A stretch of DNA of 64,000 bases, taken from assembly GCF_014874095.1 (NCBI RefSeq), contig NZ_JADBEB010000001.1:1922001-1986000 (forward strand). Direction: 5' to 3'. The translations under genes were made by a program, and so were the position numbers. Of this stretch, positions 2-47,419 are shown piece by piece. A model generated the notes under the pieces. It made no database searches. It saw nothing but the letters and a program-made list of their open reading frames with translations, and was not told where the DNA came from. Each line of letters starts with the position of its first letter. Within the stretch, counting starts at the first letter, position 1. Origin of the DNA: Plantactinospora soyae (GTDB taxonomy: Bacteria; Actinomycetota; Actinomycetes; Mycobacteriales; Micromonosporaceae).

Positions 2-481
2 CTGAGCGGCCTGGTCGGGTTGGACACGGCCGGTCCGCTGGTCAGCTTCCTGCCGATCCTGCTGATCGGCATCCTGTTCGGGCTGGCGATGGACTACGAG
101 GTGTTCCTGGTCTCCCGGATGCGGGAGGACTTCGTGCACGGCGACACCCCGACCCAGGCCACCATCAACGGCATGGGACACGGTGCCCGGGTGGTGACCG
201 CCGCCGCGCTCATCATGACCTCGGTTTTCGCCGGCTTCGTCCTGCTCGACGATCCGGTGATCAAGTCGATGGGCTTCGCCCTGGCCATCGGGGTGGCGAT
301 CGACGCGTTCGTGGTCCGGATGACGATCGTGCCGGCGGTCATCTCGCTGCTCGGCCGCAGTGCGTGGTGGCTGCCTGGCTGGCTGTCGAAGATCCTGCCC
401 AATGTCGACATCGAGGGCGAGCGGCTGCGCCGGCATCTGGCCGAGGAGCCGGAGCCGGAGCGGGTACCCGCCGGAGTCTGA
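2..481 (+). CDS. MMPL-family transporter, C-terminal part (5' cut by window edge)
   Basis: The last 159 codons of an RND-superfamily MMPL membrane protein; the frame is open to the left edge. Three or four hydrophobic segments are visible. The stretch GLAMDYEVFLVSRMRED carries the Asp-Tyr pair in a membrane helix followed by an Arg-rich turn that is typical of the final MMPL domain, where it is thought to act in proton coupling. Members export lipids, siderophores or drugs using the proton gradient. The cytoplasmic tail is Arg/Glu/Pro-rich. A perfect hairpin terminator follows at once, so this is the last gene of its unit. The substrate cannot be told from the fragment. Confidence 0.88.
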   Translation: MSGLVGLDTAGPLVSFLPILLIGILFGLAMDYEVFLVSRMREDFVHGDTPTQATINGMGHGARVVTAAALIMTSVFAGFVLLDDPVIKSMGFALAIGVAIDAFVVRMTIVPAVISLLGRSAWWLPGWLSKILPNVDIEGERLRRHLAEEPEPERVPAGV

Positions 482-491
482 GCAGCCCCAT

Positions 492-528
492 CCGGACGCG
501 CCCGACCATCGTGGTCGGGCGCGTCCGG
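492..528 (+). terminator. Intrinsic terminator after the MMPL gene
   Basis: A perfect 17-bp inverted repeat (arms 492-508 and 512-528) with a 3-nt loop lies 11 bases after the stop codon and is followed by a short T-containing stretch (cgtttgtcg). It is GC-rich, without a true U-tract, as is usual in high-GC actinobacteria. Confidence 0.85.
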
Positions 529-605
529 CGTTTGTCGGGTGATGCCGGCCACCCGGACCCGGTAATTTGCTGGCCGGAACCGGGCCCGGAGGTCAGGATC
601 GCGGC

Positions 606-1532
606 ATGGCATCGACTTCCGCGGACGGCCGTGCCGGCATCGACACCGCCCTGGTACGCCGGCTGCTCGCCGCGCAGTTCCCACAGTGGAGCGCCCTGCC
701 GGTGACGCCGGTGGAGGTCGACGGTTGGGACAACCGGACGTACCGGCTGGGCGAGAAGATGACCGTACGGCTGCCCACCGCCGCCGGCTACGTCCCCGCG
801 ATAGCCAAGGAGAACGAGTGGCTGCCCCGACTCGCGCCGGCGCTGCCGGTCGCGGTGCCGCCGGTCCTGGCCATGGGCGCGCCGGACGCCGGGTACCCCT
901 TCCCGTGGTCGGTGCGCGGCTGGTTGCCCGGCCAGCGGGCTGATCGGGGGCGCATCGACGACATGCCTGGGTTCGCGGTCTCGGTGGCCGGGTTTCTCCG
1001 TGCCCTCCAACGCTGCGACACCGCCGGTGGCCCGCCGGCCGGCGAGCACAGTTTCTACCGGGGAGCCTCGCCCGCCCACTACGACCAGGAGACTCGACGC
1101 TGCCTTGCCGCGCTGGCCGGCCGGGTCGACACCGCCCGCGCCGCCGCCGTCTGGGACGCCGCCCTGGCCGCCGAGTGGCGGGGCGAGGCCGTGTGGTTCC
1201 ACGGCGACGTCGCCTCGGGGAACCTTCTGGTCCGGGACGGCGAGCTGGCGGCGGTCATCGATTTCGGCACCTCGGGCGTCGGGGATCCGGCGTGCGATCT
1301 CGTGATCGCGTGGACGATGTTCTCCGGCGACAGCCGGGACGCCTTCCGACGGGCGGTCGGCCAGGACGAGGGCACCTGGGCCCGAGCCCGAGGCTGGGCC
1401 GTGTGGAAGGAACTCCTGGTCCTGTCCGGCCGCATCGACACCGATCCGGAGCAGGCCGCCGTCAACCAGCGCGTGATCGGCGAGATCCTCGCCGACCACG
1501 ACCGCTTCGGCCAGGCCACCGTTACGGCCTAG
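606..1532 (+). CDS. Aminoglycoside phosphotransferase-family (APH/ChoK-like) kinase
   Basis: 308 residues with the APH fold. WFHGDVASGNLLV holds the catalytic Asp (HGD) and the Asn that helps bind metal, and VIDFGTSGVGDPACDL holds the metal-binding Asp (DFG-like) followed by the family's GDPxxDL. The N-terminal lobe has the WDNRTYRLG start typical of these enzymes. Members phosphorylate hydroxyls of small molecules: aminoglycosides, macrolides, hydroxyurea, choline or sugars. Family membership does not show resistance. The ATG at 606 is chosen because GGAGG lies at 588-592; an in-frame ATG further upstream would add 13 residues without a better ribosome site. It is convergent with the CPBP gene. 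Confidence 0.85.
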   Translation: MASTSADGRAGIDTALVRRLLAAQFPQWSALPVTPVEVDGWDNRTYRLGEKMTVRLPTAAGYVPAIAKENEWLPRLAPALPVAVPPVLAMGAPDAGYPFPWSVRGWLPGQRADRGRIDDMPGFAVSVAGFLRALQRCDTAGGPPAGEHSFYRGASPAHYDQETRRCLAALAGRVDTARAAAVWDAALAAEWRGEAVWFHGDVASGNLLVRDGELAAVIDFGTSGVGDPACDLVIAWTMFSGDSRDAFRRAVGQDEGTWARARGWAVWKELLVLSGRIDTDPEQAAVNQRVIGEILADHDRFGQATVTA

Positions 1533-1578
1533 CCGAAGCGTCCCGCTCCCGGCGGCCCGGTCAGGCCGCCCGAACCGA

Positions 1579-2505
1579 TCAACCGTGGGTTCGACCCATC
1601 CGGTACGTCGCGTCGGGGTCGACCTGGCCGGCGGGGCCGACCGGGTACGGATTGGCGTCCACCCGGTACGGGTCGGCGTCCACCTGAACCGGCAACTCCG
1701 GCCGGCGATCGCGGTACGACGCGAGCAGCGTGAGCGCGACGATGACCTGCACCGCCACGATGAATGCCAGCGTCATGGGCGACTTGACGCCCAACAGCGC
1801 GATCGTCGTGTTGACGCCGAAGTGGACCGCGATCGCCGCCAGCACCCCGGCCCGCTCGTAGGCGTACCCGATGAGCAGTGCCATCGGGATGACGTTGACC
1901 GAGAACAGCAGCCCGTTCCAGCTGATCAGACCGAACTCGGCGTGAATCGTTCCGGGGATGAAGAACAGCGGCAGGTGCCACACCGCCCAGGCGGCACCCA
2001 TCAGCAGGCCGACCTGGAGGCGGCTCATCGACGCCCGCAGTCGTGGGTACGCCGTGCCACGCCAACCGGGCTCCTCGGCCAGCGGACCACCGATCAGCAT
2101 GCTGATGAAGAACGGCACAGGTCCGCCGACAGTCGCGATCAGACTCTGCCCCGACGTGAGACTCAGCTCCGGACCACCCAGGAGGTACGCGAGCAGCGCG
2201 CCCGCCAGCACGGTCGCCGACGCCATCGCCAGCAGGGGCAGTACCCAGAACAGTCGCATGCCCAGCCGGAGTCTCACCGTACGGGCAGGTACGGGTTGGC
2301 GGAGCCGGGCGCGGCGTGCCCGGACCACGATCGCTCCGATCGTCGGGCCGAAGCCACCGAGCAGGAAGAAGATGGCGGTGGGGAAACTCGTCGTCGATCC
2401 GCCGAGTGCGATCGCGGTGAACCAGAAGACTCCGGTCCACGCGAACGTGACAGCGAAGAAGAGGGCAAGACCACTTTGCCGGCTGGCGGGGGTTGCGATA
2501 GTCAC
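1579..2505 (-). CDS. CPBP-family intramembrane glutamic protease
   Basis: A 308-residue polytopic membrane protein of the CPBP (CAAX protease and bacteriocin-processing, Abi) family, M79-like. The motifs are visible: EEPGWRG for EExxxR, then WHLPLFF for the first catalytic His helix, then HFGVNT for the last His/Asn helix. Such enzymes cleave within membranes; in bacteria the roles range from bacteriocin immunity to protein processing, and the substrate here is unknown. The GTG at 2505 is preferred over an upstream start near 2580, because the extra residues are hydrophilic and an AAAGGGA-like site precedes 2505. The tail after the last helix is a short D/P/Y-rich repeat (VDADPYRVDANPYPV). 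It lies 100 bp downstream of the hydrolase gene on the same strand and may be cotranscribed. Confidence 0.85.
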   Translation of the reverse strand: MTIATPASRQSGLALFFAVTFAWTGVFWFTAIALGGSTTSFPTAIFFLLGGFGPTIGAIVVRARRARLRQPVPARTVRLRLGMRLFWVLPLLAMASATVLAGALLAYLLGGPELSLTSGQSLIATVGGPVPFFISMLIGGPLAEEPGWRGTAYPRLRASMSRLQVGLLMGAAWAVWHLPLFFIPGTIHAEFGLISWNGLLFSVNVIPMALLIGYAYERAGVLAAIAVHFGVNTTIALLGVKSPMTLAFIVAVQVIVALTLLASYRDRRPELPVQVDADPYRVDANPYPVGPAGQVDPDATYRMGRTHG

Positions 2506-2604
2506 GCCTTTTCCCTTTCCGGGGGTGTCGCACGAAGGGACCACGATCGCCTCGTGCGGGAAGCGAGCGGAACTGCACAAAAGGGGTCGGACCAGGGGCT
2601 CTGA

Positions 2605-3576
2605 CTAGGGGGTTGCCCGTTCCGTCCGGGGAGTTCCGTCCGCGTGCGCGGCGCGAATCTCCTGAGGCCTGTCCTGGAGTCGCTGGGCGAGCCAGCCGGC
2701 CACCTGCGCGAGCAGGTCGGCGTCGACCGGCTGGCGCAGCAGCCGGGGATAGGAGCGCACCGACGGACGGCCGGGGTCCCGGCGCAACACGTGGGTGAGG
2801 TCGGGGATCCGGTGGACCTCGACGGCGCCGGGCACCAGCCTGCTGATCTCGTCCAGGTCCGCGGGATCGACCTGGATGTCCTTGTCGCCGGTGATCGCCA
2901 GGACGGGGACCTGGATTTTCGCCAGTTCCGGGCGCGGGTCGTGGTGGAGCATCTCCCGCATCCAGCGGGCGTTCATCCGCATCCCGGCAACCCGTACGAC
3001 GTCCGTGCTGCTCCTCTTGATCCGAGCCAGTTGCCGGGCGGCCAGGGTACGCAGGAGTGGCAGCAGCGGCCGTACCGGCGCAGGAAGATCACGGGCGATC
3101 ATCCGGGCCTGCCAGCGCAGGGCGTCCTCGCCCAGCCGGGCGAACCCGGCCAGCAGCACCACCGCGCCGATCCCCGGGTGCGTGCCGAGGGAGATGGCGT
3201 GCAGGGCACCCTCGCTGTGCCCGACGACGCCGATGGCGTCGGCCCGGATCTCGGGTCGCCCGGCCAGGGCGCGTAGCGCGGCGGCGGCATCGTGCCGGTT
3301 CTCGGCGAATCCGGTCGCGAGCCAGTCGCCGGCCGTGGCGCCCACGCCGCGCCGGTCATAGCGCAGCGTGGCGATTCCCACCCTCGCCAGCGCGGCGGCC
3401 AGCGGCGGTCCGAGTTCCATCCGGAGCCGAGGGCCGGTGTTGGCGTCGCGGTCCAGCCGCCCCGACGCGTGCAACAGCAGGACCGCCGGGTGCGGCCCGG
3501 GGCCCGCGGGCAGGGTCAACGTGCCGACCAGGGGCAGTCGGTCATCCGCGATGACCGACATGTCGACATCCTGCAT
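2605..3576 (-). CDS. Alpha/beta hydrolase (serine hydrolase, dienelactone hydrolase/acyl-peptidase type)
   Basis: 323 residues with the alpha/beta-hydrolase fold. LLLHASG forms the oxyanion-hole strand, GVVGHSEGA is the nucleophile elbow (Ser in GHSEG), ITGDKD carries the acid residue, and DLTHVLRRD supplies the catalytic His. There is no signal peptide, so it is cytoplasmic. The natural ester or amide substrate cannot be predicted. ATG at 3576 is used; a second ATG five codons on (MSVIADD) is also possible. The gene diverges from the HTH regulator at 3654, with three regulator-type repeats between, so it is the obvious target of that regulator. Confidence 0.85.
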   Translation of the reverse strand: MQDVDMSVIADDRLPLVGTLTLPAGPGPHPAVLLLHASGRLDRDANTGPRLRMELGPPLAAALARVGIATLRYDRRGVGATAGDWLATGFAENRHDAAAALRALAGRPEIRADAIGVVGHSEGALHAISLGTHPGIGAVVLLAGFARLGEDALRWQARMIARDLPAPVRPLLPLLRTLAARQLARIKRSSTDVVRVAGMRMNARWMREMLHHDPRPELAKIQVPVLAITGDKDIQVDPADLDEISRLVPGAVEVHRIPDLTHVLRRDPGRPSVRSYPRLLRQPVDADLLAQVAGWLAQRLQDRPQEIRAAHADGTPRTERATP

Positions 3577-3600
3577 GTCCCACCTTCCATTATTCTCGAT

Positions 3601-3648
3601 ACTGCGAACATTCCCGTCTGTGGGAACATTATCGTATGTGGGAACATG
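3601..3648. promoter_or_regulatory. Three direct repeats at 18-bp spacing in a divergent control region
   Basis: The motif TGTGGGAACAT occurs at 3619-3629 and 3637-3647, with a weaker copy (actGCGAACAT) at 3601-3611, each exactly 18 bp apart. They sit between the divergent hydrolase and HTH genes. The last copy overlaps an in-frame ATG at 3636, which argues that translation of the regulator starts at 3654 instead. Inferred role: operator for the adjacent HTH protein. Confidence 0.6.
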
Positions 3649-3653
3649 GGGTC

Positions 3654-4208
3654 ATGGCAACCGCAGACCTTTTCCTCCACCCCGTACGGATGCGCATCCT
3701 GCAAGCGCTGTTCGACGCCGACCCGCTGACCACCGCACAGCTGCGCGATCGCCTGCCCGACATCCCGGCCGCGACGATGTACCGGCAGATCGCCGTCCTG
3801 GCCGACGCGGGCGTACTGGAGGTGGTGGACGAGAAACGGGTACGCGGCACGGTGGAACGCAGCTACCGGGTACGCGACGAGCACGCGGTGATCGACCCCG
3901 CCGCACGATCGGCGATGACCCGGGAGGACCACCAGCGGGCGTTCACCACCTTCTCGGCATCGCTGATGGGTGACTTCCACCGCTACCTCGCCCATGAGGA
4001 CGCCGATCCGACCTACGACGGGGTGGCCTACCGACAGGCCGCGGTATGGCTGACCAGGGAGGAGTTCGCCGCGATGGTCGAGGAGATCGAGCACGCGGTC
4101 GTCTCACGGATCGGCGGCACCCGGGACGGCGACCGGATACGTCACGTCGTCAGCCTCGTCGTCGTACCGGACAACCCCGCGCCGAAGCCGGCGCCCGGCG
4201 CCAGCTGA
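3654..4208 (+). CDS. ArsR-like winged-HTH transcriptional regulator
   Basis: 184 residues. Residues 1-80 form a winged helix of the ArsR/HTH_20 type: LFLHPVRMRILQAL for helix 1, LTTAQLRDRL then TMYRQIAVLADAGVLEVV for the recognition helix, and a basic wing (EKRVRGTVERSYRV). The C-terminal half is the effector or dimer part seen in many actinobacterial HTH regulators of about 180-190 residues; no metal-binding Cys pair is present. It reads divergently from the hydrolase. The start at 3654 (MATADLF) matches the usual N-terminus, and the upstream ATG at 3636 lies inside an operator-like repeat. Probably autoregulated and controlling the hydrolase and CPBP genes; the ligand is unknown. Confidence 0.82.
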   Translation: MATADLFLHPVRMRILQALFDADPLTTAQLRDRLPDIPAATMYRQIAVLADAGVLEVVDEKRVRGTVERSYRVRDEHAVIDPAARSAMTREDHQRAFTTFSASLMGDFHRYLAHEDADPTYDGVAYRQAAVWLTREEFAAMVEEIEHAVVSRIGGTRDGDRIRHVVSLVVVPDNPAPKPAPGAS

Positions 4209-4235
4209 GCGTGCCCGCCAGGTGCACGAGGTGTT

Positions 4236-4283
4236 AGGAAGGGGCCCTTCTTCTACAGAAAACGATAAGAAGGGGCCCTTCCT
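4236..4283. terminator. Bidirectional hairpin between convergent genes
   Basis: Perfect 17-bp arms (4236-4252 and 4267-4283) around a 14-nt A-rich loop; each arm contains the palindrome AAGGGGCCCTT. The right arm ends where the stop codon of the minus-strand gene begins. It works as a terminator in both directions and looks like a dispersed GGGGCCC-type intergenic element. Confidence 0.75.
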
Positions 4284-5285
4284 TCACGGGGTGAACGACA
4301 GCGCGCACTCGGTGTGATGCGCCGCGATCTGCAGCATGAAGGCCCGGTCGGAGAAGTCGCCGTCGAGCAGCCGCAGCGGTCCCGCGACCAACGACAGGTG
4401 CCGGGCGAGTCGGTAGAAGCGCAGTCGCCGCTCGTCGAGTTCGTCGGCGGGCCGCAGCAGGCGGTAGTGCTCGCCGAAGCGCATCCACAGGAAGACGTGC
4501 TCCCACTCGACGTCGAAGAACATCAGCCCCTCGATGTCGATCAGCACCGGAGCACCGTCGCCGTCCACCAGCACGTGATCCGGCCCGAGCTCGCCGTGGA
4601 TCAGCCCGTACGTCGTCCGGGGTGCGATCACGTCGGCCAACTGGTGGAGCAGTTCGGTCAGCCGTACCCGGTCCCGGGCGATCCGCTCGTCCCGGCCGGC
4701 GGCCTCGGCGAGGTCGGCGAGCGCCCCGTCCAGCACCAACCGCACCGACGACCGGTGCTCGGGCGCCGAATCGACCGCCCTGGCGACGGCCGCGACCTTG
4801 CCTATCCGCGACGTCCGGTGCTGACGCATCGCCGTCAGGGCCTCGCCGAGCCGGGCGACGGTGCCGGCCATCGCCGCCGGGTCGGCCGCGAGTCGCCGCT
4901 CCAGGTTCGCGCCCCGAACGTCCTCGACCAACGCCACGTCCGCCGGATACAGGTTCCGGCTCCGATCGAGGAACAGGACCGTCGGCGTACGGACTCCGAT
5001 CGCGGACAACGTGTCGCTCGCCGCCTCGAACAACTCGCTGCCGGAGGCGTCCGAGAACGGGTCGTCGAGCGGGTCGCCGTCGGTCTCGCGTCCCGCCGGC
5101 CAGAAGTTCTCCTCGGCGCTCCAGACGTAGACGACCACTGTGGACCGATCGTCCAGGGTCAGTCGGTAGACGCCCTTCTTCGTACCGCCGCGCAGCCGGT
5201 CCACCGCGTCGATCCGGCGTACGGGTCCGAGGCCGGCCCGGACCACCCCGGCCAGCCGCTCCCGGTCGGCGAACTCCCGCCGCAT
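4284..5285 (-). CDS. Phosphotransferase (APH-like) protein
   Basis: 333 residues with an APH/kinase-like fold: an N-terminal nucleotide lobe with GTKKGVYRL, then TYGLIHGELGPDHVLV (HGE in place of the usual HGD, with His in place of the metal Asn) and VLIDIEGLMFFDVEWEH (DIEG metal motif). The HGE and DH changes mean that catalysis may differ from a standard aminoglycoside kinase, and similar proteins are often annotated only as phosphotransferase. The start at 5285 is supported by GGGAGG nine bases upstream. It is divergent from the sigma factor at 5499, leaving a 213-bp control region, and convergent with the HTH gene across a strong hairpin. Substrate unknown. Confidence 0.8.
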   Translation of the reverse strand: MRREFADRERLAGVVRAGLGPVRRIDAVDRLRGGTKKGVYRLTLDDRSTVVVYVWSAEENFWPAGRETDGDPLDDPFSDASGSELFEAASDTLSAIGVRTPTVLFLDRSRNLYPADVALVEDVRGANLERRLAADPAAMAGTVARLGEALTAMRQHRTSRIGKVAAVARAVDSAPEHRSSVRLVLDGALADLAEAAGRDERIARDRVRLTELLHQLADVIAPRTTYGLIHGELGPDHVLVDGDGAPVLIDIEGLMFFDVEWEHVFLWMRFGEHYRLLRPADELDERRLRFYRLARHLSLVAGPLRLLDGDFSDRAFMLQIAAHHTECALSFTP

Positions 5286-14974: not shown

Positions 14975-15027
14975 TGTGGATAACTCGTCCTATCCGGGCC
15001 GCAGCAAGGTGAATCGCCTGTGGATAA
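14975..15027. promoter_or_regulatory. Two perfect DnaA boxes downstream of murJ
   Basis: TGTGGATAA (reverse of TTATCCACA) occurs at 14975-14983 and 15019-15027, in the same orientation 44 bp apart (about four helical turns), in the 503-bp gap between murJ and the pseudokinase gene. Placement 20 kb from oriC suggests a DnaA-titration or regulatory site; this is inference. Confidence 0.6.
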
Positions 15028-25811: not shown

Positions 25812-26684
25812 CTAGTACGCCCTGGTCGCCGGATCACCGGAGGATTGGCGCTCAGGGGCGGGCCGGAGGGGTTGCGCCGGCACCTCTGCCGTCTTCGCCT
25901 CCGCTGCCGCTGCCGCCTCCGCTGCCGCTGCCCCCTTCGTGGTCTCTGCCGCCACCGGTCCATCCGGTGCATCCGATGCCGGTACCGCCGATGGCGCGGC
26001 AGGCGTCACCGACGACCTCTCGGCCGCCAGCGCGGCCTCACGTCCCGAAGCCGCCTGCTGCGTCAGGTTCGACGGCGCCTGCCACTGGATGCGGGGTGGC
26101 TCGGCCAGGGGACGTCCACCGAACTCGGCGAGCCAGGCGGCCACCATCGCCAGGTTCTCCCGCCACTGCGACTCGGGAATCGCCGGCAGGATGTCGTCCC
26201 AGAGGGACAGGAACGTGCCGCGCAACTGGAGTCGGCCGTACGGCCGGGCGAGGAACCACAGATGCAGGTGCTCCGCGCCGTCACCCCAGCGGTTGACGTG
26301 CACCCGGGCCACCCCGTCGAGTGAACGGACCGCGCGTTCCAGCCGTACCGTCATCACGCCGAGTTCGGCGGCGAGCAGGTTGGGCAGGTCGCCCAGGTCC
26401 AGATGAGAGCGGGATTCGAGGATCAGCACCATCGGCAGGCCGGTGGGCCGGTCCATGGCACGCACCCGCCAACGCTCACTGACCCAGATGTACGCATCGT
26501 CGGGCGCGTTGCAGGAATGACACTCACCGGAGCCTTCGCCCTTGCGCGGGGGTTCGACCGCGACCGGCTCGTCGAGTTGCTTGACCCGGAAGTCGCCTTC
26601 GAAGGGAAAGGAGGGCCACCTGGTGAAGTCCGGTACGGCAGGAGGGGTGTGGGACACGAGGCTGACCCTAACCGAGTTTGACAC
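25812..26684 (-). CDS. HIT-like hypothetical protein with Ala/Pro-rich tail
   Basis: 290 residues. Residues about 40-210 resemble an actinobacterial HIT-like (histidine triad) fold, with GAEHLHLWFLARP giving an H-x-H run at the expected place. Two Cys (GECHSCNAPD) near residue 45 could bind metal. Residues about 215-290 are Ala/Glu/Pro repeats (AAAEAAAAAEAK). Function not assigned. GTG at 26684 is used; a GTG nine codons later (VSHTPP) is possible. It lies downstream of parB across a 1.2-kb non-coding stretch with two parS sites. Confidence 0.65.
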   Translation of the reverse strand: MSNSVRVSLVSHTPPAVPDFTRWPSFPFEGDFRVKQLDEPVAVEPPRKGEGSGECHSCNAPDDAYIWVSERWRVRAMDRPTGLPMVLILESRSHLDLGDLPNLLAAELGVMTVRLERAVRSLDGVARVHVNRWGDGAEHLHLWFLARPYGRLQLRGTFLSLWDDILPAIPESQWRENLAMVAAWLAEFGGRPLAEPPRIQWQAPSNLTQQAASGREAALAAERSSVTPAAPSAVPASDAPDGPVAAETTKGAAAAEAAAAAEAKTAEVPAQPLRPAPERQSSGDPATRAY

Positions 26685-26822
26685 CGCTGTCCCTACCCCG
26701 TTTCGGCTGCCGACGATCGGGACTCCGGGGAGCCTTCCGGGCGGCGGAAGTTGGCGGCACGCGAGGCTCCGGAAGCGTCGGCAACGACCCCGAAACGGCA
26801 CGATCGGCGTCGGTTGGGCTCC

Positions 26823-26890
26823 GTTGTCCACAGGCCGGTACCCCGTTCCACGCGCGGTTTCACGTGAAACGGGGGCAGCCTGTGGACAAC
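26823..26890. repeat. 13-bp DnaA-box inverted repeat enclosing a parS site
   Basis: GTTGTCCACAGGC (26823-26835) and its exact reverse complement GCCTGTGGACAAC (26878-26890) each contain a perfect TTGTCCACA box (26824-26832 and 26881-26889). A near-match TGTGGATGA follows at 26894. The parS at 26857-26870 lies between the arms. Confidence 0.85.
26857..26870. promoter_or_regulatory. parS: parS site 1
   Basis: GTTTCACGTGAAAC, a perfect 14-bp palindrome matching the universal ParB-binding core. Non-coding. Flanked by DnaA boxes. Confidence 0.95.
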
Positions 26891-27374
26891 GCCTGTGGAT
26901 GACCGCGCACCGTCCTCGGTCGACGTCGTCGCGGCCAAACCGGAGACCAGCCGGCCTACCCCGTTGAGCGGATGTCGGCCACCTCCCAGCGTCGGTCTCC
27001 GTCGCTCGATGACCCGGCGCGCAGCCGTTCCGATCGTGAATGCCGACCGGGCACAGGTGTCCGGCATCCGGCCGGTAATCGCTCGCAGCGTGCGCACGGG
27101 CGGGACGACGACGGACGACGGCGGTCCGATCCGTCGCAGCGCCAGGTCGAGCCTGGGGAACTGCCTGGATGTATACGGGGGATGGATGTCCCCACGCGCC
27201 GGAGAGGCTCGACGTCGCGGCCCGATGATTTCCCGAGGGCAGCCTCGGCGAGCACGCCCCAAGGTCACTGTCGGAGTACGACCACGCCCGTGCCCCGGCG
27301 GGTTGTGGCCGGCGTGGAAGGTCCGGTCCTTCGGATCGCCGTCCCCGGGTATCAGGCGGTGGCGGAGCGGGCTG

Positions 27375-27388
27375 GTTTCACGTGAAAC
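27375..27388. promoter_or_regulatory. parS: parS site 2
   Basis: A second perfect GTTTCACGTGAAAC palindrome, 518 bp from site 1 and about 500 bp downstream of the parB stop. Confidence 0.95.
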
Positions 27389-27887: not shown

Positions 27888-28925
27888 TCAGTCCGAGTCG
27901 TCGTCGTTCTGGCCCTCGGCGTCCACCATGCCGATGACACCGACGATTCGCTCAAGGTCGTCGACCGTGGCGAACTCGATCGTAATCTTGCCTTTGTTCC
28001 GACCGATGTCGACCTTGACCCTGGTGTCGAACCGATCCGACAGCCGATCCGCCAGATCGGTCAGGCCCGGGGCGTGCACCTTGGCGCGCCGCTTCGCCGG
28101 GCTGGGCCGGGTAGGCGAAATCTCGGCCAGCTTCACGACCTCCTCCGTGGCCCGTACGGAGAGCCCTTCGGCCACGATCCGACGCGCCAACTCCTCCTGC
28201 GCGGTCGAATCCTCCAGACCCAGCAGCGCACGGGCGTGGCCTGCGGAGAGCACCCCGGCAGCCACCCGCTTCTGCACCTCGGGCGGAAGGTTCAGCAGCC
28301 GGATGGTGTTGGAGATCTGCGGCCGGCTCCGGCCGATCCGTCGGGCCAGCTCCTCGTGCGTCGCGCCGAACTCCTCCAGCAGCTGCTGGTACGCCGCCGC
28401 CTCTTCCAGCGGGTTCAGGTTGGCGCGGTGGATGTTCTCCAGCAGCGCGTCCCGGAGCATCGCGTCGTCGCGGGTGTCCCGGACGATGGCCGGAATGGAC
28501 TCCCGGCCGACAGCCTGCGCCGCTCGCCAGCGCCGCTCGCCCATGACGAGTTCGAACTGATCGTCCGGGAGCTGCCGCACCACGATCGGCTGGAGGAACC
28601 CGACCTCCTGGATCGAGAGCTTGAGTTCCTCGAGAGCGTCCTCGTCGAAAATCTGCCGAGGCTGCTTGGGGTTGGGCACGATCGAATCCAGCGGGATCTC
28701 GGCGAACCGAGCTCCGGGGACCGGCGCCAGCTCCGGACCGGCCGGCTGTGCCGGGGCGACGGGCGCCGGCGCCACCCAGGTGGTCTCGCCGGCGGCCGCC
28801 GGCGCTACGGCCTCAGGCCGATCGGCTGGAGGCTCGGCCGTCACCACTCCGGAGACTGGTTCCGCTGTGGTGGGAATCAGCGCGCCCAGACCTCGACCGA
28901 GCCCGCCCCGCGGACGGTTCTTCAT
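27888..28925 (-). CDS. parB: Chromosome-partitioning protein ParB (CTPase)
   Basis: 345 residues. After a basic start ([13 protein letters not shown], the usual ParA-contact segment) and an Ala/Pro linker comes the CTP-binding domain ([32 protein letters not shown]), then the HTH that reads parS ([17 protein letters not shown]) and a C-terminal dimer domain. It loads at parS as a sliding clamp and spreads to position the origin and load SMC. The tail is acidic ([11 protein letters not shown]). ParA is 27 bp upstream in the same operon, and the parS sites flank and enter the operon. Confidence 0.97.
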
Positions 28926-28952: not shown

Positions 28953-30542
28953 CTACACATTGCGGCCAACAGACTCTTTGACCCCTCGCATCGCAATCTC
29001 CTGAGCGGCCTCGAAGTAACTGGTGGCGCCCCGCGATCCGGGATCGTAGGTCATGACGGACTGGCCGTAGCTCGGAGCCTCCGATACCCGCACGTTCCGC
29101 GGGATCACGGACTGCAGGACCTTGTCGCCGAAGTGGTTCCGGACGTCCTGCTCGACCGCGTCCGCCAGTCGGGTGCGCCGGTCGTACATGGTGAGCAGGA
29201 TGGTCGAGACCTCGAGGGTGGGGTTCAGGTGCTGCCGTACCAGGTTGATGTTGTTGATCAGCTGGTTGAGCCCCTCCAGCGCGTAGTACTCGCACTGGAT
29301 GGGGATCAGTACCTCCTGCGCGGCGCAGAGGGCGTTGACCGTGAGCAGCCCGAGGGAGGGCGGGCAGTCGATGAAGACGTAGTCGAACTCGGCGGGGTGG
29401 CCGGCGATCGCTCGGGCCAGCCGTGACTCCCGGGCCACCACCGAGACGAGTTCGATCTCCGCGCCGGCCAGGTCGATGGTGGCGGGTACGCACCAGAGAT
29501 CGGGGATCCCCTCGACGCTCTGGGCCACCTCGGCGAGGGGGACGTTGTCGATCAGGCAGTCGTAGACGTCCGGGACACCGGCGTGGTGGGGCACGTTGAG
29601 TCCGGTGGAGGCGTTCCCCTGCGGATCAAGGTCAACGACGAGGACACGATTTCCGTGCAGCGCCAGGGCTACGGCCAGGTTGACCGTCGTGGTGGTCTTG
29701 CCAACCCCTCCCTTCTGGTTCGCAACACACATGATCCGTGGCCGGTCCGGACGCGGCATCGTCACCTCGCCGCTCGGGTTCAGGATTTGCACAGCGCGCA
29801 TTGCCTCCATTGCCAACGGGGGATCGTCCTGGTCACGCGACGGCGTTTCACGTGAAACGTACGCGTCGGGCGCGGCTTCCTCGGTCAGGGGTTGCGGTAC
29901 AACTGTCGACGAATCGGCTCTCGGGCCGGAATCGGCGATCGGGTGGAGATCGGGGCCTTGGCCGTCCGCCGTCGGTACCGGAGTACCGGCCGGCCCCGAC
30001 GACTGCGGCTCGAAGTGCTGGGTCACCGGCTGGACCGGAACTGGTGGTCCGGTTGGCGTCGGGTCGGGGAGGCGCGCCGACCGCCGTCCCGGCTCCGCAG
30101 CCCGACGCCCCGCCGGCCGCTGCGGCTCCGGAGCACGCTCCCGTCGCCGAGGCGGTTCCGGCGTACGCCCGGCAGGCCGTACCGGAGCCGGCACCGACGC
30201 CGAGGCGGAGGCGGCCGCCGGATAGGACACCTCCGGCACTGGCACCGAGGCGGAGGCAACCGCCGGATAGGGCGCCTCCGGGCGCGGAACCGGATACCCC
30301 GGCTCCGGTGGCGAGTCGTGCCCCGGCGGCGTCACCCGCGCGGTACCGCGGCTCGGCCCCGGGGGTGCCGCAGAGTCGTACCCGTCGGACTCGTCAGGCC
30401 CGCCAGCTCGGGCCGGCGGCCGAGCCCGCCCGCTGGCAGACCAGCCCTCGTAGTCGGTTTCACGTGAAACATCGGCGTCGCCGGAGTGGTATCCCCCGGA
30501 GTCCGTCATCTCTGAATCGTCATACCTACCGTTGTCATGCAC
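28953..30542 (-). CDS. parA: Chromosome-partitioning ATPase ParA with a long disordered N-terminus
   Basis: 529 residues; usual ParA proteins are near 260-320. The ATPase core begins at about 265: CVANQKGGVGKTTTTVNLA (deviant Walker A), LVVDLDPQGNASTGL, FIDCPPSLGLLTVNAL, then LLTMYDRRTRLADAVEQDV. Residues 1-260 are Pro/Arg/Ala-rich, low-complexity and without a fold. Two parS palindromes lie inside this part of the gene (about codons 25 and 229), encoding VSRET each time. The ATP-dependent dimer binds DNA and is driven by ParB to move origins apart. ATG at 30542 is the first in-frame start; an ATG 11 codons later is possible. Confidence 0.93.
   Translation of the reverse strand: MHDNGRYDDSEMTDSGGYHSGDADVSRETDYEGWSASGRARPPARAGGPDESDGYDSAAPPGPSRGTARVTPPGHDSPPEPGYPVPRPEAPYPAVASASVPVPEVSYPAAASASASVPAPVRPAGRTPEPPRRRERAPEPQRPAGRRAAEPGRRSARLPDPTPTGPPVPVQPVTQHFEPQSSGPAGTPVPTADGQGPDLHPIADSGPRADSSTVVPQPLTEEAAPDAYVSRETPSRDQDDPPLAMEAMRAVQILNPSGEVTMPRPDRPRIMCVANQKGGVGKTTTTVNLAVALALHGNRVLVVDLDPQGNASTGLNVPHHAGVPDVYDCLIDNVPLAEVAQSVEGIPDLWCVPATIDLAGAEIELVSVVARESRLARAIAGHPAEFDYVFIDCPPSLGLLTVNALCAAQEVLIPIQCEYYALEGLNQLINNINLVRQHLNPTLEVSTILLTMYDRRTRLADAVEQDVRNHFGDKVLQSVIPRNVRVSEAPSYGQSVMTYDPGSRGATSYFEAAQEIAMRGVKESVGRNV
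29845..29858. promoter_or_regulatory. parS: parS site 3 (inside parA)
   Basis: Perfect GTTTCACGTGAAAC within the parA coding sequence, between the disordered extension and the ATPase domain. Confidence 0.95.
30457..30470. promoter_or_regulatory. parS: parS site 4 (inside parA)
   Basis: Perfect palindrome near the 5' end of parA, flanked as GGTTTCACGTGAAACA. The nearest parS to oriC, about 7.5 kb away. Confidence 0.95.
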
Positions 30543-37921: not shown

Positions 37922-38380
37922 TCGTCCACAGCCGGTTGTCCACCATCGGTGGATAACCGGGGGGTGCCTTCGGTGAGCGAACCCACAAGCTGTGGACAAG
38001 TGTTGGGGATAGTGATGTGGACAGTCACCCAGAGTCACCGACTTGTCCACCGGGTTCGGCCGCCTGTGCACGGGCTGTTGAAGGTTCTGGGGACAGTGCT
38101 CGTCGATGTCCGACCGGCTGTGCCCACAGATGGGGAAAAGGCGGTGGGTAACCCGGTGGACAACCGGTGGACAACCGTGGATAACCTCGGCGGCCCGACC
38201 GGCTGTGGATGGGCGACCCCGTTTTCGGGCCGGTTGTCCACACCCCGCACACCGGTGGATAAGCTTCTGACCTGCGTAGACCCCGCCTCTCCACAGTTTG
38301 CACAGCACCGATGAAGACGATTTAGATATCTCTTCTAAAGAACAAAAACCAATCACCAGCGTTGGGCATGCTGTGGATCG
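37922..38380. other. oriC: Chromosomal origin of replication (oriC)
   Basis: The dnaA-dnaN gap holds about 15 DnaA boxes with at most two mismatches to TTGTCCACA. Perfect: 37991-37999 (reverse) and 38234-38242. Others: 37922, 37936, 37948, 38016, 38043, 38155, 38166, 38176, 38204, 38254, 38287 and 38372. Both orientations occur, several close together (38155-38184 has three in a row). Together with dnaA and dnaN at the sides and the parS sites nearby, this marks oriC. Confidence 0.95.
38319..38352. other. AT-rich unwinding element of oriC
   Basis: The stretch around gatttagatatctcttc and the following taaagaacaaaaacc is about 70% A+T in an otherwise GC-rich region and lies between the main box cluster and dnaN. 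It is the only such stretch in the gap, so it is the likely DNA unwinding element. Confidence 0.75.
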
Positions 38381-47370: not shown

Positions 47371-47419
47371 TCCACACAGTTATCCACAGCTTCCACGGTT
47401 TCCACAGCCGTTATCCACA
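47371..47419. promoter_or_regulatory. DnaA-box cluster between gyrB and gyrA
   Basis: Two perfect TTATCCACA boxes at 47380-47388 and 47411-47419, with three more TCCAC cores between or beside them (47371, 47392 and 47401), all in the same orientation. The cluster is 36-84 bp before the gyrA start. Confidence 0.75.

What the first reader, a model, noticed from the sequence alone, without database searches (positions are those of the whole stretch)
26823..26890. 13-bp inverted repeat of perfect DnaA boxes around a parS site
GTTGTCCACAGGC at 26823-26835 and its exact reverse complement at 26878-26890 hold a perfect TTGTCCACA each; the parS palindrome 26857-26870 lies between them, 7 bp off the centre. 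A near-match box follows at 26894. The exact symmetry in non-coding DNA about 11 kb from oriC suggests selection. DnaA bound here might couple initiation to ParB loading or titrate DnaA at the centromere.
Basis: partly seen in the sequence, partly recalled or inferred. Interest (0 to 1): 0.75.

Follow-up and report, generated by a model that had tools for sequence, protein, structure and literature searches.

The report
DnaA boxes caging one centromere site
Many members of one family of soil bacteria carry a precisely spaced set of binding sites for the protein that starts DNA replication, usually placed around a binding site for the machinery that pulls chromosomes apart, which suggests that the two processes are wired together at this spot.

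Summary
The window holds three inward-facing DnaA boxes around a perfect parS. The long exact repeat is not what is kept: 13 bp or more across parS in 6 of 61 modules. Spacing is kept: box, 24 nt, parS, 8-10 nt, box, 4 nt, box. A sequence model scores 56.9 bits or more in 77 of 150 genomes of the family (probably Micromonosporaceae; 48 of the 77 built the model), and at most 26.7 bits in 207 genomes of other families of the order. Of 487 other parS in 101 family regions, 34 have a box within 62 bp. In 12 regions (5 genera) the central parS is gone, yet the 47-48-nt gap is kept and another parS lies 14-28 bp outside in 11 of 12. Best reading: a DnaA complex built at, and coupled to, one parS. 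Its topology is that of the E. coli DARS core with about four helical turns more between the facing boxes. Binding and function are inferred.

The parts
26824..26832 (+). Outer left DnaA box, TTGTCCACA (often TCATCCACA in relatives)
   Evidence: same place, centred 35.5 bp from the parS centre, in 46 of 61 modules, plus 8 at the mirrored place; TCCACA core at exactly 24 nt from parS in 54 of 61
26833..26856 (+). 24-nt spacer between outer box and parS with conserved (G)TTYYACGCGCT next to parS; possibly a site for a further protein or a bend
   Evidence: column information; AC at spacer positions 18-19 in 43 of 54 modules with central parS and 11 of 12 without
26857..26870 (.). parS, GTTTCACGTGAAAC, exact
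26881..26889 (-). Inner right DnaA box, TTGTCCACA, 10 nt after parS
   Evidence: offset 10 nt in 29, 9 nt in 28, 8 nt in 2 of 59 modules
26894..26902 (-). Outer right DnaA box, TCATCCACA, 13 bp from the inner box; with 26824-26832 it is symmetric about parS
26822..26835 (+). Left arm of the exact inverted repeat (14 bp; 13 bp in the finding): box plus flank
26878..26891 (-). Right arm of the exact inverted repeat (14 bp; 13 bp in the finding): box plus flank
25812..26657 (-). Gene downstream of the module: conserved protein without a Pfam match at E 0.01, HIT-like by eye (HLHLW); start codon not determined; called YbjN in my scripts by mistake
   Evidence: module to its tblastn match start: median 193.5 bp, 110-878, n=56
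27888..28925 (-). parB (Pfam ParB_N, HTH_ParB, ParB_C)
28953..30542 (-). parA (Pfam AAA_31, CbiA)
27375..27388 (.). Second parS, no DnaA box within 62 bp
29845..29858 (.). Third parS, no DnaA box within 62 bp
30457..30470 (.). Fourth parS, no DnaA box within 62 bp
37922..38242 (.). Cluster of eight DnaA boxes (up to 1 mismatch from TTGTCCACA), the likely oriC, about 11 kb away; a separate site
   Evidence: oriC role inferred

Best explanation
It is a composite initiator-centromere site. DnaA occupies three (in some genera four) inward-facing boxes and forms one fixed nucleoprotein complex; in most of the modules found the ParB loading site parS lies at its centre. Bound DnaA, about 21 and 35 bp from the parS centre, would fence ParB clamps as they leave parS, and ParB loading would in turn disturb the DnaA complex. 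So this one parS, about 11 kb from the likely origin in the window, would let initiator state and partition-complex assembly sense each other, while the other parS sites load ParB freely. Shown: anatomy, spacing, one strong copy per genome, restriction to the family among the genomes searched, persistence of adjacency when the central parS is lost. Inferred: DnaA and ParB binding, mutual influence, effect on initiation or segregation.
For: One parS per region carries 2-4 boxes in 61 of 101 regions; of 487 other parS, 34 have a box within 62 bp, and the six of these with two or more are second parS copies 78 bp from a module parS. Box positions are fixed, and every position within 62 bp used by three or more boxes faces inward; far-left flank columns average 0.09 bit. 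77 of 150 family genomes score 56.9 bits or more, 48 of them the source of the model, 29 not. In the order draw 36 of 42 family and 0 of 207 other genomes score 49 bits or more; 17 of the 36 were not in the earlier draw, and all 17 new family genomes of that draw are among the 36. parS-less modules keep a 47-48-nt gap and have another parS 14-28 bp outside in 11 of 12. Outside the family, 5 of 130 parS have a box within 62 bp, about 11 expected. TTGTCCACA is listed as a high-affinity box of S. coelicolor and M. tuberculosis (PMC4285127 passages). DNA-bound TetR attenuates ParB accumulation in vitro (PMC7053999 passages). DnaA binds Caulobacter parS and acts on its partition (PMC6399470 section 10; PMC4468827 passages).
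Against: No binding data. In 12 of 101 regions the boxes keep their geometry without a central parS, so DnaA function at the site does not need parS between the boxes. 26 of 101 regions have no such triplet and 6 more have one only on the oriC side; some of these genomes hold the module beyond the fetched stretch (places against the regions), others have other box arrangements or none that I saw. 7 of the 61 modules do not have the outer box at exactly 24 nt: degraded in L092, L097 and L118, shifted by 1 nt in L096 and L139, otherwise arranged in L093 and L143. The six family genomes without a strong hit in the order draw are five of genus g12 and one of g5. The module lies closer to the downstream gene than to parB. 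parS is common in this intergenic region, so adjacency after loss is partly expected; its base rate was not computed. A B. subtilis study titled 'Regulation of DNA replication initiation by ParA is independent of parS location' (PMC7614844, listing only) warns against assuming that location matters.
Confidence: 0.55

Rival explanations
1. A DnaA-control element like E. coli DARS or datA, or a titration site, in which parS is incidental: DnaA molecules on facing boxes contact each other across a looped spacer and change nucleotide state, or are simply held there.
For: DARS1 and DARS2 cores, measured here, have one box facing two tandem boxes (gap 5, tandem step 12); the module has the same topology with gap 47-48, tandem step 13. 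The extra 42-43 bp are about four helical turns. Gap-16 triplets (one turn more than DARS) recur in genera g61, g7 and g31. Geometry survives loss of the central parS.
Against: Gap and tandem step differ from DARS. DARS1 and DARS2 lie far from oriC (0.81 and 2.97 Mb positions in E. coli; PMC5742627 passages), this site close to the likely oriC. If parS were incidental, its recurrent centring and its presence within 28 bp in 11 of 12 parS-less cases would be coincidence. The phasing argument rests on few spacing classes, and gap-16 triplets also occur in two regions of other families (L266, L270).
Confidence: 0.22
2. A regulatory region of the downstream gene: DnaA (and ParB) control transcription of the conserved HIT-like gene.
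For: The module lies a median of 193.5 bp from the start of that gene's tblastn match (110-878), against a median of 1080.5 bp (73-4374) from parB, n=56.
Against: The module is inverted relative to the gene in 8 of 61 modules (read). In L126 an ORF that looks GNAT-like lies between module and gene; L164 also has a large distance, 878 bp (cause not examined). Promoter control would not by itself ask for a symmetric box layout or a parS.
Confidence: 0.14
3. ParB-centred cage only: boxes limit ParB spreading or shape the partition complex, with no feedback on replication.
For: Symmetric placement of the outer boxes about parS; DNA-bound TetR attenuates ParB accumulation in vitro (PMC7053999 passages).
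Against: Box geometry is kept without a central parS; most other parS have no box near.
Confidence: 0.07
4. Chance or shared ancestry without function.
For: Family members are related, so counts are not independent.
Against: Spacing is kept while the flanks carry almost no information across 18 of 44 genera (genera counted by hand); about 1e-4 by chance in the window.
Confidence: 0.02

Closest known systems
Caulobacter crescentus parS with DnaA binding (Mera et al. 2014, not seen itself; read through PMC6399470, PMC4468827 and PMC9945499, section 10 of the first, passages of all)
   Same: Initiator DnaA binding placed at the centromere, near the origin (about 8 kb there, about 11 kb here).
   Different: Here three or four boxes in rigid spacing, conserved over many genera of one actinobacterial family; one parS among four or five in the window's genome. 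Binding and effect are reported there, not shown here.
Vibrio cholerae chromosome II rctA/parS2 (PMC6399470 passages)
   Same: A parS embedded among binding sites of the replication initiator near the origin.
   Different: Initiator RctB, not DnaA; iteron-type origin; control of initiation reported from experiments there.
E. coli DARS1 and DARS2 core
   Same: Three DnaA boxes, one facing two in tandem; fixed spacing; intergenic.
   Different: Gap 5 nt and tandem step 12 there, gap 47-48 and step 13 here; DARS is not described with a parS in the passages read; different chromosomal position; nucleotide-exchange activity unknown here.
Streptomyces coelicolor DnaA-box clusters H69, H24, D78 (recalled; no text seen)
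   Same: DnaA-box clusters outside oriC in an actinobacterium.
   Different: A link to parS is not known to me; six regions of genus g70, which I take to be Streptomyces (unnamed), had no box within 62 bp of any of 29 parS.

Membership tests
DnaA-bound centromere of the Caulobacter type | DnaA boxes beside a parS near the origin | tested here: met
   (origin position inferred)
DnaA-bound centromere of the Caulobacter type | DnaA binds the site and affects parS movement | not testable with these tools
   needs ChIP or imaging
DARS | Three boxes, one opposite to the other two | tested here: met
DARS | Core spacing (gap 5 nt, tandem step 12) as measured in DARS1 and DARS2 | tested here: not met
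   gap 47-48, step 13
DARS | Promotes ADP release from DnaA | not testable with these tools
   biochemistry needed
rctA/parS2 | parS embedded among initiator binding sites | tested here: met
   (DnaA boxes, not RctB sites)
rctA/parS2 | RctB-type initiator and iteron origin | not tested
   the sites here are DnaA boxes; no search for RctB or iterons was made
chromosomal parS | GTTTCACGTGAAAC near parAB (consensus recalled) | tested here: met
S. coelicolor DnaA-box clusters | Homology or shared position | not tested
   original paper not seen

The most novel reading that the evidence does not exclude
A ParB-gated DARS-type switch: facing DnaA boxes, in about the same helical phase as the E. coli DARS core but four turns further apart, hold DnaA in a loop whose apex carries parS. 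ParB loading opens or closes the loop and thereby changes the DnaA nucleotide state, so that partition-complex assembly directly licenses or delays the next initiation.
Probability: 0.15. Interest if true: 0.92.

Novelty: new variant of a known kind. Interest (0 to 1): 0.72.

Why it matters
How replication initiation and chromosome segregation are coordinated is an open question. Here evolution has kept a short DNA element with fixed geometry that brings initiator boxes and a centromere site together over many genera of one actinobacterial family, and has left natural variants (parS inside, parS outside, inverted, two plus two boxes, shorter gap) that serve as ready-made mutants. The element is short enough to test in vitro with purified DnaA and ParB.

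Tried and rejected
Rejected: the exact repeat as the selected unit. Exact repeats of 13 bp or more across parS are in 6 of 61 modules; in most, only the box cores and spacing match. Corrected: parS is central, if the outer boxes are taken. Considered and dropped: the conserved spacer motif as a ParB half-site. TTNNAC next to parS occurs at 20 of 61 module parS and 0 of 487 others, but its AC persists when the central parS is lost (11 of 12), so a separate site is the better reading. Tried: phylum pattern parS-N7..13-TGTGGA: 4 of 396 genomes; only two genomes of the family show in that table and both match, the two matches outside have GTGTGGA or TTGTGGA and look like chance. Tried: geometry pattern in the family: 90 of 150 genomes, some of these matches elsewhere than at the module, e.g. 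all seven in G023. In the order: 33 of 249 genomes, 5 of them outside the family, none of those five with parS in the gap. Literature: ten searches of the open-licence library; I saw no report of such a module in Micromonosporaceae in the listings or passages; most subscription papers are not held.

Rows dropped: searches left out L093 and L143 (boxes arranged otherwise), one search also the window; alignment A1 holds 48 of the 58 sequences listed. In one search, six of 18 parS-less triplets lie 9-10 kb on the oriC side and were not counted as modules. Of the 146 family genomes with a parB match, the window's own and 100 others were used (for G012 the stretch with the module, not that with parB). 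Of the 104 non-family genomes with a parB match, 40 were fetched; two of the 40 regions had no parS.

Full report
WHAT IS THERE. The window (G000:C1:1922001-1986000, a 9.7-Mb genome in one contig) holds, between a HIT-like gene and parB, the sequence TTGTCCACA (26824-26832), 24 nt, parS GTTTCACGTGAAAC (26857-26870), 10 nt, TTGTCCACA on the minus strand (26881-26889), 4 nt, TCATCCACA on the minus strand (26894-26902). The two outer boxes are symmetric about parS (midpoint 26863.0, parS centre 26863.5). The genome has four exact parS and one with one mismatch; of the four in the window only this one has boxes within 62 bp.

WHERE IT LIES TAXONOMICALLY. A parS-plus-box pattern in the named collection gave 33 stretches, all from records named Micromonospora, Plantactinospora, Catenuloplanes or Rugosimonospora. 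Contig lengths of G006 and G003 (genus g1, the window's) equal those of Plantactinospora endophytica and P. mayteni records there; G005, also g1, equals a record named Micromonospora sp. HM5-17; G012 (g7) and G027 (g22) equal Catenuloplanes japonicus and Rugosimonospora africana. So the genus is probably Plantactinospora or its close kin and family f1 is probably Micromonosporaceae (inference).

CONSERVATION. The six other genus members held have the module. I fetched one region from each of 100 family genomes with a parB match (7-20 kb each) and added the window. Among 548 parS (up to 1 mismatch) the boxes concentrate on one parS per region: 61 of 101 regions have a parS with two or more boxes (up to 1 mismatch) within 62 bp. 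Of the other 487 parS, 34 have at least one box and 6 two or more; those six are second parS copies 78 bp from a module parS. Positions relative to the parS centre: left box at -35.5 in 46 of 61 modules, inner right at +20.5 or +21.5 in 48, outer right at +33.5 or +34.5 in 49, and the mirror image in eight. Every position within 62 bp that holds three or more boxes faces inward. The outer box has its TCCACA core at exactly 24 nt in 54 of 61; the seven others are degraded, shifted by 1 nt or otherwise arranged. Column information is high in boxes and parS and near zero outside (mean 0.09 bit in the far-left flank; 59 modules). These modules were chosen for having boxes near parS, so box presence is by selection; the fixed spacing and orientation are not. 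Some genera have two boxes on each side.

SPECIFICITY. A sequence-only model (R1) built from 48 modules scores 56.9 bits or more in 77 of 150 family genomes, in 18 of 44 genera (my count from the list); 48 of the 77 are its source, 29 are not. G002 has two such hits; in the capped list no other genome has a second hit at another place above 34 bits. In a draw of 249 genomes of the order, 36 of 42 family members score 49 bits or more, among them all 17 family genomes that were not in the earlier draw; the other six are five of genus g12 and one of g5. None of the 207 genomes of other families exceeds 26.7 bits (searches of more than 40 genomes use stricter filters that lose some weak matches). 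In 40 parB regions of other families, 5 of 130 parS have a box within 62 bp where about 11 would be expected from box density; four of the five lie in three genomes of one genus, g371 (L235, L256, L263; the first two were looked at and have weak boxes).

NATURAL VARIANTS. The geometry box core, 46-49 nt, box core, 7 nt, box core (at most one mismatch in all) was found at the locus with parS in the gap in 57 of 101 regions and without parS in the gap in 12 (six of genus g54, three of g19, one each of g2, g16, g26); 6 further regions have it only on the oriC side and 26 not at all. In the 12 the gap is 47 or 48 nt. A parS lies 14-28 bp outside the module in 11 of the 12 and 260 bp away in the twelfth. 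Four of the g54 gaps hold a 9-of-14 match and the g26 gap an 8-of-14 match to parS at the old place, better than elsewhere in the gap, as expected for a relic; the other seven do not. Genus g61 has a shorter gap of 16 nt with tandem step 12 (three genomes looked at), four g7 genomes have such a triplet in addition to the normal module, and L171 (g31) has one with step 13. Genus g17 has other box arrangements beside two parS (three genomes looked at).

COMPARISON WITH DARS. E. coli DARS1 and DARS2 cores, read from NC_000913.3, are box, 5 nt, box, step 12, box with one box facing two. I located them by the map positions in PMC5742627 and by the box pattern. That review (passages) states the same topology and equal spacing at both sites, and PMC8682772 (passages) a head-to-head contact of DnaA at boxes I and II. 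The module has the same topology with 42-43 bp more between the facing boxes, about four turns of 10.5 bp; the gap-16 class is one turn more. This phasing is suggestive only: few spacing classes exist.

MECHANISM. I favour a composite site where DnaA and ParB influence one another (confidence 0.55). DnaA-bound boxes 21 and 35 bp from the parS centre would be barriers to ParB clamps, as TetR is in vitro (PMC7053999 passages), and ParB loading would disturb a DnaA complex spanning parS. Precedents: DnaA at Caulobacter parS (PMC6399470 section 10; PMC4468827 and PMC9945499 passages; the 2014 paper itself was not seen) and rctA/parS2 of V. cholerae (PMC6399470 passages). The main rival is a DnaA-control element in which parS is incidental (0.22). 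Control of the downstream gene is weaker (0.14): the module is close to it (median 193.5 bp, n=56) but inverted in eight of 61 modules and separated from it by a GNAT-like ORF in L126.

LIMITS. Family genomes are related and no tree was built; counts are not independent events. Binding, occupancy and phenotype are untested. Boxes were scored by consensus only. The names HIT-like and GNAT-like rest on inspection; Pfam gave no match for the former at E 0.01.

Noticed in passing
L077 / G002:C397, about 2.7 kb and 94 kb: parB and the module occur twice in inverted orientation near both ends of one contig: large inverted duplication or assembly artefact.
   Followed up: no
L112, L120, L135, L143, L145, L148, 9-10 kb right of parB: A triplet with the same inward geometry and 46-48-nt gap, without parS and with one mismatch, lies on the oriC side in six regions.
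   Followed up: no
G023 (seven places on five contigs): Dispersed palindromic repeat, mostly TCCACATCC...GATGTGGATC, that mimics the box geometry.
   Followed up: no
window 14975-15027 and 47380-47419: Two further pairs of TTATCCACA boxes in the same orientation, 44 and 31 bp apart.
   Followed up: no
window 25812-26657: Conserved gene next to the module without a Pfam match at E 0.01; looks HIT-like.
   Followed up: partly
L235, L256, L263 (genus g371, another family): parS with weak boxes within 62 bp in three genomes of one genus; in L235 and L256 two boxes on one side, 21 bp apart. Possibly an independent association.
   Followed up: partly
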